From assembly GCA_016350165.1 (NCBI GenBank), contig CP066225.1, forward strand, positions 3,472,001-3,536,000: a DNA stretch of 64,000 bases, read 5' to 3'. The translations under genes and the position numbers were made by a program. The DNA is from Planctomycetota bacterium. GTDB taxonomy: Bacteria > Planctomycetota > Phycisphaerae > Phycisphaerales > Phycisphaeraceae. Shown piece after piece: positions 32,523-58,953 of this stretch; position 1 is the first letter of the stretch; every line of letters starts with the position of its first letter. The notes beneath the pieces are model-generated. The model was not told the origin of the DNA. It searched no databases and saw only the letters and a list, made by a program, of their open reading frames with translations.

Positions 32523-33569
32523 TTGGATTTTAAGAACAGCACGAAATTATCTTATCACCCACTGGTAAGAGCTGTCGCACGCAATCTCAAAACCATCCCC
32601 ACACTTAAATCCAGCAACAACACATCACTTCAAATCCTCATCGCAACCAGTGGCGGCGCCGACTCCGTCGCTCTACTGCTCGCACTCAACCTCCTCAATC
32701 AAAAACGTACCTACAACCTCAACCTCACTGTCGCACACATCCAACATCACCTGCGAGGCGACGATGCCGAAGCCGACGCGCAATTCGTTCAATCACTCGC
32801 ATTAAAACTCAATCTTCCCTTCATCCGCAAAGACATTGATCTATCCAGCGCTAAGAACATCGAAAACGACGCAAGACGCATGCGCTATGACGCACTCACC
32901 CAAATCGCACAAGACATTAACTGTCCATTCATCGCAACCGCACATCACGCAGACGATCAACTCGAAACAATCCTCATGCGCATGCTCCGAGGCACCGCCT
33001 CCAAAGGTCTTCGAGGCATCGCAAAGACGCGATCCATCGCATCCAATATCAAACTCATCCGCCCTATGCTCACCGTCAAACGCGAAGACGTCATCGACTT
33101 CCTTAATACAGCCGATCAACCTTGGCGCGAGGATCACACCAACGCCGATGTCGATCGGTGGCGATCAAAACTAAGACACGAAGTGCTTCCAGTCCTCAAA
33201 GAGATCCGTGAAGATGCAGCCCTCAAAGCTGTTCAGCTCAGCAACGTCATGAGGGATCTCGATAGCGTACTCAAAGATCAGATTCAGCAAGTCCGATCCG
33301 ATAGTGTCCAAGTCATCGGACAGGGCGACTATCACATGATTAGACAGGATTTACGAGATCAACGTAAGCCTGTTCTTATCGGTTTACTCAAAGAACTCGT
33401 TACTTCCCTTGGCGTCGATACTGATCGATCAGGTGAAAAAGAGCTTGGACCAATCGTCAAAGCCATCAAAGATAACCAAGGCGGCAAACGCATCTTTCAA
33501 CTCAACGCAAGCATCGAAGTTCAAGTTACACGTGAAGAAGTTTTAGTACAGAAAACTAGCTCATCATGA
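32523..33569 (+). CDS. tilS: tRNA(Ile)-lysidine synthase
   Basis: 348 residues. It adds lysine to C34 of the CAU-anticodon Ile tRNA. The PP-loop SGGADS is at 43-48; later motifs are VAHIQHHLRG, TAHHADDQLETILMRMLRGTASKGLRG and the RSKLRHEVLPVL core. The start is a TTG: a TGA stands two codons upstream and there is no in-frame ATG before residue 120, while AGGTTG lies just before it. It lacks most of the C-terminal domain of the E. coli enzyme. The last codons overlap the next ORF by ATGA. Confidence 0.9.
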   Translation: MDFKNSTKLSYHPLVRAVARNLKTIPTLKSSNNTSLQILIATSGGADSVALLLALNLLNQKRTYNLNLTVAHIQHHLRGDDAEADAQFVQSLALKLNLPFIRKDIDLSSAKNIENDARRMRYDALTQIAQDINCPFIATAHHADDQLETILMRMLRGTASKGLRGIAKTRSIASNIKLIRPMLTVKREDVIDFLNTADQPWREDHTNADVDRWRSKLRHEVLPVLKEIREDAALKAVQLSNVMRDLDSVLKDQIQQVRSDSVQVIGQGDYHMIRQDLRDQRKPVLIGLLKELVTSLGVDTDRSGEKELGPIVKAIKDNQGGKRIFQLNASIEVQVTREEVLVQKTSSS

Positions 33570-33820
33570 AATATTGGCTCAAATGACTCACCCTCACACT
33601 TCTCATCGGGTTCATCGCCTGGCTCCTCATCAGTATCATCATTTCCCTCACCCTCTGTAGCCTCATCGGTCCTTGAGGCGGCGCACTAGAAACTGTTGAT
33701 GATCAAACCGTCGCAAAAACCCAAACATGGATGATCGCTCTTCGTATTCTCGTCATCATCATTGCCCTAATCATCGGCTGGTTCCGTTCAGCCAAAATTT
33801 TAAACCGAAAACAAAACTAA
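33566..33820 (+). pseudogene. Small two-helix membrane ORF with two in-frame TGA codons
   Basis: An ATG at 33566 overlaps the tilS stop (ATGA), the usual form of translational coupling. The frame runs 84 codons to TAA 33818-33820 and would encode two clear membrane helices and a basic end (WFRSAKILNRKQN). It is broken by TGA at codon 7 (33584-33586, between LK and LTL) and codon 37 (33674-33676, between IGP and GGAL). Codons are C-ending like tilS. Both TGA could be former TGG. Window genes use TGA as a normal stop, so decay is the simplest view. Confidence 0.5.
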
Positions 33821-33825
33821 TCGAG

Positions 33826-33840
33826 CTAATCAACGATTAG
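33826..33840. repeat. 15-bp palindrome CTAAT-CAACG-ATTAG
   Basis: Exact copy five bases after the TAA of the interrupted small ORF. Confidence 0.7.
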
Positions 33841-33869
33841 AACCTGCACTTTCAGACATGTACGTCATT

Positions 33870-34200
33870 GAAAAATTTTGTGCGCACAAAACCGACGGCG
33901 CGCAAAAAACCGTATTTCAAGCGCGCGCACGAAAAAAGCAAATCACATACATCAGTTTTATAACTGCCGTTTTTACACTTGATTACAAGAACAACTTCAC
34001 GTTATCGCAGATCTGAGAAAACAGCACGTTTTGAGCCAAAACGGAATGAAAACAATCAAAAACAATCCAAAACGTGCAGAAATCATCTGAAAACAAGCAC
34101 TTTTCACAGCCTTCACGTTCACACACGACAGCAAACGTGCGCGCTTTAGCACATAATCACGCGATTCATCGACCACGTGCACTTCATATAAAACCAAATT
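33870..34200 (+). repeat. Dispersed GCGCGCAC repeat, copy upstream of the PEP-CTERM gene
   Basis: It contains TTTTGTGCGCACAAAA (about 33877), GGCGCGCAAAAAACCGTATT, GCGCGCGCACGAAAAAA (about 33920) and AACGTGCGCGCTTTAGC (about 34133). Between them is an A/C-rich part with repeated AAAAC and CACGTTTTGAG. The start of this element matches 16003-16075. No gene is present; the remaining bases to 34465 are AT-rich and probably contain the promoter for the next gene. Confidence 0.6.
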
Positions 34201-34465
34201 GATAGGGTTAGTACTATGTATACAAAAGGATACATATAGTTATTTTGCATAAGACGACATATGTATTTCTACTCAGATATTTTTAGTTTCTAAGTTCCGG
34301 TTTATCTAAATCTTTGTTTTATTGCCTGTGCAGATATCGACCAAGGCAACTGCAAATTCAGCAGCAGTTGTCCACGCTATCTTCTGCACATTTCAAGTAA
34401 TAAAACTTTCATTTTTCAAACGTTTTAAACATCTTTCTACTCTTACAGGTATAGGGAGCAAGTCT

Positions 34466-35332
34466 ATGCGCATGCGAACCAAAACTTTACTAGCAAGTGG
34501 TTTATGCATCTTCCTTGTCGGGTCAGCTGACGCTGCTACTCGCAATTATGACGCTGATTTCACATCAAACCCTGCAGTCATCGACGGCATCATCTCCGCC
34601 GGTGAATGGGACGACGCAGCCGTCGGCGGCAACTGGGTCCTTCTACGCGAAAACGGTAAAGCTGACGCAAACAACAACTTCTTCAAAGCCAAGTGGGATA
34701 ACACCGGCATCTATCTTCTGCAAAGCACAAATTACGGCGGTTGGAAGACTTACAGCCCTCCACCTGTCGGTGAAGATGTACCAAACTGGGGCGATGATCA
34801 GATCAACTTCTTCTTCGATCCAAATCTCGATAATGAAGAACTGATTCACGCGAATGTTGAAAACGATCACTACCACGTTTTGCTCAATCAGTATCTTGGC
34901 ACTTCTACTTTTGATGGCATCGCATATAGCAACACAAACGAACACATGCTGGTCGCATCGAACGTCAAACACGGTGAAAGAGTATGGGACGGCCTCGGCG
35001 CAAGTACCCGTATGACAATGGTTAACGACACTAGCGGCGGCGTTTTTGAAATGTTCCTCGCATGGGAAGATTTGAGCTACGGTGCAGACGATCCGGAAAT
35101 CAACGACCTTGCGATTGACGGCGCACCAGCCATCGGCGACGAGTGGATGTTCAACTGCTCACGTATTTCAACTGACGCAAATAACTTCCTGCCAGTCTGG
35201 CAAGATTCAGGTACACAAGTCTTTGTCGGCAGCGAAGTTAACGGCTGGGCGACCATGACATTTACACCTGAACCTACAAGTCTCGCGATCTTTGGTGTTA
35301 TGGGTACGTTATTCCTCAGACGTCGTAAATAA
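34466..35332 (+). CDS. Secreted CBM9-like protein with PEP-CTERM signal
   Basis: 288 residues from ATG 34466, chosen because GGGAG precedes it and a signal peptide (MRMRTKTLLASGLCIFLVGSADA) starts there. The body begins DFTSNPAVIDGIISAGEWDDA and goes on with WDNTGIYLLQ and DDQINFFFDP, a pattern of family 9-like carbohydrate-binding or DOMON-like beta sandwiches. The C-terminus is PEP, hydrophobic stretch, RRRK: a PEP-CTERM sorting signal. Probably a surface-held sugar- or haem-binding protein. A hairpin follows the stop. Confidence 0.78.
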   Translation: MRMRTKTLLASGLCIFLVGSADAATRNYDADFTSNPAVIDGIISAGEWDDAAVGGNWVLLRENGKADANNNFFKAKWDNTGIYLLQSTNYGGWKTYSPPPVGEDVPNWGDDQINFFFDPNLDNEELIHANVENDHYHVLLNQYLGTSTFDGIAYSNTNEHMLVASNVKHGERVWDGLGASTRMTMVNDTSGGVFEMFLAWEDLSYGADDPEINDLAIDGAPAIGDEWMFNCSRISTDANNFLPVWQDSGTQVFVGSEVNGWATMTFTPEPTSLAIFGVMGTLFLRRRK

Positions 35333-35383
35333 ACTTAGGTTTGTCGATCAAAGTGCATAATGAGGAAAGTTTCTCTTTTTGAG

Positions 35384-35413
35384 AGAGGCAGTGGCCATGA
35401 AGCCGCTGCCTCT
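35384..35413 (+). terminator. Hairpin after the PEP-CTERM gene
   Basis: AGAGGCAGTGGC / GCCGCTGCCTCT forms a 12-bp stem with one G-T pair. The following T run is weak, so it may be a processing or stability element. Confidence 0.6.
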
Positions 35414-35426
35414 ATTCATTGGTTAG
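35412..35426. repeat. Near-copy of 15-bp palindrome: CTATT-CATTG-GTTAG
   Basis: One mismatch in the left half. It begins on the right arm of the hairpin, 80 bp after the stop of the PEP-CTERM gene. Confidence 0.4.
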
Positions 35427-35521
35427 GCAGCAATGAATTATTTTCGAACAAGTAAAAAATGCACCAAGATCAATTCAGATTTTGTGCGCACTAGATTTGC
35501 AGATTTTGTTTAAGTGGTTGA

Positions 35522-36079
35522 TTAGTAATTGATTGTGTAAGTAGATTGCGTGAGTCCGGTAGGGAATGAGTAAGTTTCTTCATGTGTAAGCGGGAATGAT
35601 TTCAACAGATTCGAGAACAGCGGAATACCATGCCCAAGAATAATCGGAATGCGGGTAATGATGATTTGATTAAGCAGATTTGCATTTAAAAAATTGCAAA
35701 TAGTGATGCCACCATCGATGTAAATATGATTAAAACCACGTTGCGCAAGCTGATCTAATAGTTGATTAGGTGTCGCGTAACTTGTTTCAACAGTATTTGG
35801 TAAGTTTGCTGGAAGCGGATATGAAGGGTTAGAAGAGAGGATAATGACCGGCTTGTTTTGGTAAGGCCAATGATCCACGTTTTTTAGTACTGTTTCCAGT
35901 GTATTTCGGCCCATAACAAGTGCATCAACTGAATCAAAGAACTTTGCGAAGCCGTAGTCGGTGGGATTGTTTGGATCTTGTGATGAATTAGGGTTTGTGG
36001 TGGCGAGGAAATCGAGTGAGTTATTTTGGCCCGCGATGTAGCCGTCGATGGAAGTTGCGATGTAAGCGGTGGTTTTCAT
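35522..36079 (-). CDS. Dihydrofolate-reductase-like (RibD C-terminal) protein
   Basis: 185 residues. The RibD-C/DHFR-like fold is shown by the opening KTTAYIATSIDGYIAG, the middle VDALVMGRNTLETVL and KPVIILSSNP, and the late FNHIYIDGG and IITRIPIILGHGIPLF. Members are NADPH-dependent reductases of pterin or flavin precursors; the substrate here is unknown. It is not beside riboflavin or folate genes. First in the direction opposite to the PEP-CTERM gene. Confidence 0.82.
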   Translation of the reverse strand: MKTTAYIATSIDGYIAGQNNSLDFLATTNPNSSQDPNNPTDYGFAKFFDSVDALVMGRNTLETVLKNVDHWPYQNKPVIILSSNPSYPLPANLPNTVETSYATPNQLLDQLAQRGFNHIYIDGGITICNFLNANLLNQIIITRIPIILGHGIPLFSNLLKSFPLTHEETYSFPTGLTQSTYTINY

Positions 36080-58413: not shown

Positions 58414-58626
58414 ATTTTTCTTACCGAATCTTTGACTTGGGTGACCGAAAGATCAATCAACCCCCCGTTGATCGCGTTATGTCGAGGTCACGTTCCCACA
58501 AAATACTGATGTAAACCCATGAACCGCAATAATTAAGAGCGAATCATGCGTTTTGTGGTGGGAATGAGCGTGATCGCATGTCGCGTTTCAGATGTATCGA
58601 AAGTCGAGTCATCTGAAAAAAGGAAA

Positions 58627-58699
58627 CACGGGTGAGAGGACTTGAACCCCTAACCTGCTGATTTGGAATCAGCTGCTCTGCCAATTGAGCTACACCCGT
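58627..58699 (-). tRNA. tRNA-Trp (anticodon CCA)
   Basis: The minus strand folds into a cloverleaf: acceptor ACGGGTG / CACCCGT, D arm GCTC...GAGC, anticodon stem GCTGA / TCAGC around loop TTCCAAA (anticodon CCA), and T arm with GGTTCAAGTCC. No CCA tail is encoded. It precedes secE, as in many bacteria. Confidence 0.95.
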
Positions 58700-58953
58700 A
58701 TGAGGTGTTGTCATGAGGAATGGTTAGATCCCTATATGACAAGCCCTCCGGACTGGAGGGCACAGGAATATATTACAGGGGATGTGGGCTGTGCGTCAAG
58801 TTTCAAGGATTTATCAACGAGATTGGATGGGGATATTTGGGGGTATGGTCATGGGGAGGAAAAGTGGTAGAAAGTGGTGGTGCTAATCATGTGAGGAGTG
58901 ATTATGATGGTTGGCTTGATAAGAAAGTCGCGTCTGTGCCGGGAGTATTTTTG

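What the first reader, a model, noticed from the sequence alone, without database searches (positions are those of the whole stretch)
33566..33820. Small membrane-protein ORF with two in-frame TGA codons, coupled to tilS
The ATG overlaps the tilS stop as ATGA, codon bias matches the region and the frame makes two clean membrane helices over 84 codons, yet TGA occurs at codons 7 and 37. Reading both as Trp would give LKWLTL and IGPWGGAL. Other genes here end in TGA and code Trp by TGG, so this is either a young pseudogene or a case of stop-codon recoding.
Basis: partly seen in the sequence, partly recalled or inferred. Interest (0 to 1): 0.6.

Follow-up and report, generated by a model that had tools for sequence, protein, structure and literature searches.

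The report
Recently broken small membrane-protein gene
A small gene for a two-helix membrane protein, sitting right behind the tRNA-modification gene tilS in a deep-sea bacterium, carries two internal stop codons and is most likely a recently inactivated gene rather than a case of unusual decoding.

Summary
In detail: window 33566-33820 is an 84-codon frame overlapping the tilS stop as ATGA, with TGA at codons 7 and 37. It was once a real gene: with both stops masked as X it aligns to small two-helix proteins without internal stops in two relatives, and 0 of 2000 shuffles reach either score. Both relatives have TGG at codon 37. At codon 7 the one relative that covers it has AGA (Arg), so Trp there is unsupported. 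The one other genome of the genus held has no match, and its tilS abuts a RibD_C gene.

No means of recoding was found: one ordinary tRNA-Trp(CCA), no UCA anticodon among the 43 tRNAs found, RF2 present, no tRNA-Sec over the cut-off; TGA ends 12 of 37 window genes. Best reading: young pseudogene (0.78). Intact codon bias, no indels and both stops being TGA leave low-level UGA readthrough open (0.12); record error 0.07.

A side observation is more surprising: prfB here, and in 15 of 20 family relatives fetched, has its frameshift site as CTT-TAA-C instead of CTT-TGA-C.

The parts
33566..33820 (+). Interrupted 84-codon ORF of a small two-helix membrane protein (pseudogene)
   Evidence: Frame and stops; homology with X at the stops; codon bias; helices
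33584..33586 (+). In-frame TGA, codon 7, followed by C
   Evidence: aligned residue Arg (AGA) in G009
33674..33676 (+). In-frame TGA, codon 37, followed by G; conserved Trp (TGG) in both relatives
32523..33569 (+). tilS, upstream gene; its TGA stop overlaps the ORF's ATG as ATGA
   Evidence: PF01171 E 1.5e-50; relatives in 59 of 61 genomes
35522..36079 (-). RibD_C gene; directly behind tilS in the same-genus genome G001
   Evidence: PF01872, L033
58626..58700 (-). The one tRNA-Trp found, anticodon CCA, 5-bp anticodon stem, A9 and G24 unmutated
   Evidence: stem and positions read by eye

Best explanation
Shown: the frame descends from a real gene for a small two-helix membrane protein of a rare family (3 members found; the other two have no internal stop in the stretch held), and the copy here is interrupted by two TGA codons. 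Inferred: it is a young pseudogene. Ribosomes finishing tilS may re-initiate at the overlapping ATG but stop after six codons; the next in-frame ATG/GTG/TTG is the ATG at codon 56, so no two-helix product is made. The gene looks like an optional accessory (no match in the one other genome of the genus held; a different neighbour in each genome that has it), so its loss was tolerated. The two nonsense changes are recent, because codon usage has not decayed and no frameshift has accumulated. Either stop could have come first; the other is then neutral.
For: Homologues without internal stops and with TGG at codon 37. No match in G001, where tilS abuts RibD_C. Three members in all 51 family genomes held, no further strong member in samples of 400 order, 397 class and 392 phylum genomes. 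One tRNA-Trp, CCA, and no UCA anticodon among 43 tRNAs. RF2 gene present. TGA ends 63 of 256 genes. Two stops in series would multiply any low readthrough (inference).
Against: Neutral decay fits only if both hits came early: in simulations 3-5% of runs keep a coding score this high, 6-8% have TGA twice, 5-7% have no indel at an assumed indel:substitution ratio of 0.1; with the ORF's own codons P(two TGA) is 0.10-0.16. The ORF's codon bias is as good as an intact gene's.
Confidence: 0.78

Rival explanations
1. The gene still works at a low level: near-cognate tRNA-Trp(CCA) misreads the UGA codons, a trace of full-length protein with Trp at those positions is made, and the stops only turn expression down.
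For: Both stops are TGA, codon 37 is Trp in both relatives, no indel, intact codon bias. Codon 7 is TGA-C, a context that only 3 of 63 TGA-ended genes use. A second in-frame stop follows within 5 codons in 30 of 63 TGA-ended genes against 40 of 156 TAA-ended ones (Fisher P 0.002), falling to 19 of 44 against 32 of 117 (P 0.06) for genes 60 or more bases from the next ORF: a hint that UGA leaks here. In-frame stops under purifying selection are reported in bacteria (PMC7918605, abstract read).
Against: Two stops in series; codon 37 is TGA-G; tRNA-Trp has a 5-bp anticodon stem and neither A9C nor G24A (read), the changes linked to UGA reading in PMC13092985 (passages read); codon 7 is Arg in G009; no match for the gene in the one other genome of the genus held.
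Confidence: 0.12
2. One or both TGA are errors of the deposited sequence and the gene is intact.
For: Intact codon bias and no indel. The raw reads could not be examined here.
Against: The genome was made with Illumina as well as Nanopore reads (PMC10945688, passages read). Two independent substitution errors within 91 bases are unlikely (inference).
Confidence: 0.07
3. The organism recodes UGA generally, as Trp or, at special sites, selenocysteine.
For: None beyond the frame itself.
Against: TGA ends 63 of 256 genes; RF2 gene present; no UCA anticodon among 43 tRNAs, of which the search scored 150 of 264 candidates. The ten tRNA-Sec model matches are all under the cut-off (best 45.5 against 47 bits) and all lie on other tRNA genes found by ARAGORN (150 of 428 candidates scored). 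In 464 kb, 9 high-scoring frames split by one stop were flagged, 6 by TAA and 3 by TGA, this ORF among the 3; the other two gave no protein that I recognise by eye.
Confidence: 0.01

Closest known systems
Bacterial pseudogenes by nonsense mutation
   Same: Conserved relatives without internal stops, in-frame stops here, no means of decoding them found, no match in the one other genome of the genus held
   Different: No frameshift or codon-bias decay yet; both stops are TGA; starts on the stop of an intact upstream gene
Two-helix proteins of G009 (beside pth) and G036 (overlapping sua5/tsaC), no Pfam or NCBIfam family reached
   Same: Length, two hydrophobic segments, C-x3-GPWG-x2-LE after the first one, a co-directed translation-related gene next door
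   Different: The window copy carries two internal TGA and lies behind tilS; the G036 copy is cut at its 5' end by the contig end
UGA=Trp codes (NCBI table 4 kind)
   Same: TGA at a position that is Trp in relatives
   Different: No UCA tRNA found, RF2 present, TGA is an ordinary stop

Membership tests
Pseudogene by nonsense mutation | Homologues without the internal stops | tested here: met
   G009 and G036; G036 is cut at its 5' end, so codon 7 is covered by G009 only
Pseudogene by nonsense mutation | No decoding machinery for the stops | tested here: met
   43 tRNAs without UCA, normal tRNA-Trp, RF2 present, no tRNA-Sec over the cut-off; candidate lists were capped
Pseudogene by nonsense mutation | Relaxed selection (decayed codon bias, indels, dN/dS near 1) | tested here: not met
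   Codon bias intact, no indel; dN/dS not testable, since no close relative carries the gene. Not required of a very young pseudogene
UGA=Trp genetic code | tRNA-Trp able to read UGA (UCA anticodon, 4-bp anticodon stem, A9C or G24A) | tested here: not met
   tRNA-Trp CCA, 5-bp stem, A9, G24
UGA=Trp genetic code | UGA not used as a stop, RF2 lost | tested here: not met
   63 of 256 genes end in TGA; prfB over its cut-off
Selenoprotein | tRNA-Sec in the genome | tested here: not met
   Ten matches, all under the cut-off and all on other tRNA genes
Selenoprotein | SelA/SelB and a SECIS behind the TGA | not tested
   Not searched
Gene expressed by UGA readthrough | Protein product crossing the stops | not testable with these tools
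   Needs proteomics or a reporter

The most novel reading that the evidence does not exclude
UGA is naturally leaky in this planctomycete, and the ORF is a working gene whose two UGA codons are both read by the ordinary tRNA-Trp(CCA), so that the tilS transcript yields a trace of two-helix protein that rises when RF2 runs short. The UAA-type prfB frameshift site of this clade would change how RF2 supply is sensed and could tie such readthrough to release-factor level.
Probability: 0.08. Interest if true: 0.6.

Novelty: new member of a known kind. Interest (0 to 1): 0.22.

Why it matters
As a pseudogene it is ordinary, but it is a useful control for claims of stop-codon recoding: two TGA in one gene-like frame, one of them at a conserved Trp, look like recoding, yet no means of decoding them was found. 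It also shows a small rare membrane-protein family whose three members each lie next to a translation-related gene (tilS, pth, sua5). The side observation on prfB may matter more: a 2025 survey holds that TAA in the RF2 frameshift site has not become broadly fixed in particular clades, while in the relatives sampled here it is the common state.

Tried and rejected
General UGA=Trp: rejected. Selenocysteine: no tRNA-Sec over the cut-off; SelA, SelB and SECIS not searched. Restart after codon 7: no in-frame ATG/GTG/TTG lies before the ATG at codon 56 (read), so restart could give only a one-helix remnant; rarer start codons were not considered.

Known family: best Pfam match TcpE, 15.4 bits against a cut-off of 29.9; best NCBIfam match MPN565, 14.6 against 130. 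PHROGs, PADLOC and PDB sequences were not searched. Viral contigs: 44 stretches matched a pattern, none confirmed. Phage, plasmid and metagenome collections were not searched.

Rows left out of the family: 33 of 61 genomes matched at E up to 1; own, G036 and G009 were below 1e-6 and the next best was 0.0031. Profile matches in G019, G065, G071, G898, G938, G781 and G776 (19-25 bits, open frames of 122-1080 aa) were dropped as chance against 117-134 bits for the three members; of these seven I looked at the DNA or ORFs of two only.

Insertion marks: a 19-nt inverted pair (33873-33891 / 35480-35498) lies around the PEP-CTERM-like ORF, not the broken ORF; other repeats are short. Structure: two helices (2-34, 46-83) but pLDDT 68, pTM 0.37 from 3 sequences, too weak for a fold search, so none was run. 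The search of named genomes with tilS found one relative only (L031; ORFs listed).

Full report
WHAT THE WINDOW IS. It is bases 3472001-3536000 of a single 5,234,020-base contig. That length equals the published genome of Poriferisphaera heterotrophicis ZRK32, a cultured deep-sea planctomycete sequenced with Illumina and Nanopore (PMC10945688, passages read). The one other genome of the genus held, G001, has 4,291,168 bases, the length that paper gives for P. corsica KS4. Both identifications rest on these lengths.

THE OBSERVATION. Window 33566-33820 has 84 codons, TGA at codons 7 and 37, TAA at the end, and an ATG overlapping the tilS TGA. Two hydrophobic segments lie at residues 8-26 and 55-73. 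Codon use is gene-like: 73rd percentile of 3000 gene windows, reached by 0.28% of 6000 out-of-frame windows. One antisense frame scores 0.220 against 0.264, so this alone is not proof.

IT WAS A GENE. Searching 60 relatives and the own genome gave two real matches. One is G009, a 95-aa frame starting 15 bases behind pth (PF01195). The other is G036, a 73-aa frame whose stop overlaps the start of sua5/tsaC as ATGA (PF01300, PF03481) and whose 5' end is cut by the contig end. With X at both stops the window frame scores 96 and 90 against them; 0 of 2000 local shuffles and 0 of 545 hydrophobic segments of this genome reach either score. The three share C-x3-GP-x-G-x2-LE behind helix 1, and codon 37 is TGG in both relatives. 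Codon 7 aligns with AGA (Arg) in G009 and is not covered in G036. So Trp at codon 37 is supported and Trp at codon 7 is not.

IT IS RARE AND LOOKS OPTIONAL. A profile of the three found no further strong member in the 51 family genomes held or in samples of 400 order, 397 class and 392 phylum genomes; the samples overlap. In G001 there is no match, and tilS is directly followed by a convergent RibD_C gene. In the window the matching RibD_C gene lies 1.95 kb further on, behind the ORF and a PEP-CTERM-like ORF. The neighbours tilS, pth and sua5 are all tRNA or translation genes; this is a post-hoc pattern from three cases.

CAN THE STOPS BE READ? Of 43 tRNAs found (150 of 264 candidates scored; the paper counts 45) none has a UCA anticodon. 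The one tRNA-Trp (CCA, window 58626-58700) has a 5-bp anticodon stem, A9 and G24 (stem read by eye). An RF2 gene is present. The ten tRNA-Sec model matches are under the cut-off and all lie on other tRNA genes. Of 256 genes of 150 codons or more in 464 kb, 156 end in TAA, 63 in TGA and 37 in TAG. A scan of the same 464 kb for high-scoring frames split by one stop flagged 9 places, 6 TAA and 3 TGA, this ORF among the 3. There is no sign of a general recoding.

HOW YOUNG? In neutral simulations on 84-codon segments of 195 genes of this genome, two stops arise after a median of 46-61 substitutions, depending on the mutation spectrum. Of the runs, 3-5% then still score as high as the ORF, 6-8% have TGA twice, and 5-7% would lack an indel at an assumed indel:substitution ratio of 0.1. 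With the ORF's own Trp-rich codons two nonsense changes are both TGA with P 0.10-0.16. The pseudogene reading therefore needs both hits to be early. That is possible, but it is the main tension, and it is why readthrough keeps 0.12.

IS UGA LEAKY HERE? A second in-frame stop follows within 5 codons in 30 of 63 TGA-ended genes against 40 of 156 TAA-ended ones (Fisher P 0.002). For genes 60 or more bases from the next ORF it is 19 of 44 against 32 of 117 (P 0.06), and for closer ones 11 of 19 against 8 of 39 (P 0.007), so gene packing explains part of it. TGA-C ends only 3 of 63 genes; codon 7 is TGA-C and codon 37 is TGA-G. This is compatible with some leakiness but does not show that the ORF uses it.

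VERDICT. Young pseudogene 0.78, inefficient readthrough 0.12, record error 0.07, general recoding 0.01. Shown: homology, stops, no match in the one other genome of the genus held, ordinary decoding genes. Inferred: loss of product, order of events, youth.

SIDE OBSERVATION, prfB. Checking RF2 showed that prfB here has its programmed frameshift site as CTT TAA C...RDSL-stop, then NYDTQSERL in the +1 frame. I fetched the prfB starts of 20 of the other 50 family genomes, mostly those whose profile match began near the site. Of the 20, 15 have CTT-TAA-C, 4 have CTT-TGA-C (G024, G023, G002, G030) and 1 (G014) has no such site. The pattern CGNGAYTCNCTTTAAC occurs in 56 of 98 sampled genomes of the order (family included) and in 12 of 299 others of the class; the reversed control pattern in 2 of 98 and 10 of 299 (split by hand from its rows). 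Matches outside the fetched genomes were not checked to be prfB.

Noticed in passing
Own genome C1:4284726-4285766 (L114:1458-2574); relatives L156-L175: The prfB programmed-frameshift site is CTT TAA C, not the textbook CTT TGA C, here and in 15 of 20 family relatives fetched (4 TGA, 1 without the site). The matching DNA pattern is in 56 of 98 sampled genomes of the order against 12 of 299 others of the class (reversed control 2 and 10). A 2025 survey reports TAA in 1.4% of genomes and as not fixed in clades.
   Followed up: partly
20 stretches L124-L143 plus the window: Genes ending in TGA have a second in-frame stop within 5 codons more often than genes ending in TAA (30 of 63 against 40 of 156; 19 of 44 against 32 of 117 when 60 or more bases from the next ORF), and TGA-C is rare (3 of 63): possible safeguard against leaky UGA.
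   Followed up: partly
window 33570-35520: About 1.95 kb separates tilS from the RibD_C gene here, while the two are adjacent in G001 (L033). It holds the broken ORF and a PEP-CTERM-like ORF (34466-35332; label recalled, no Pfam match), the latter bracketed by a 19-nt inverted pair at 33873-33891 / 35480-35498.
   Followed up: partly
L002, L003 and window 33566: The three family members each lie next to a co-directed tRNA or translation gene (sua5/tsaC, pth, tilS), two of them with an ATGA overlap; post hoc, three cases.
   Followed up: no
L130:7411 and L132:902, minus strand: Two other gene-like frames in this genome are split by one TGA; their translations were not matched to any family.
   Followed up: no
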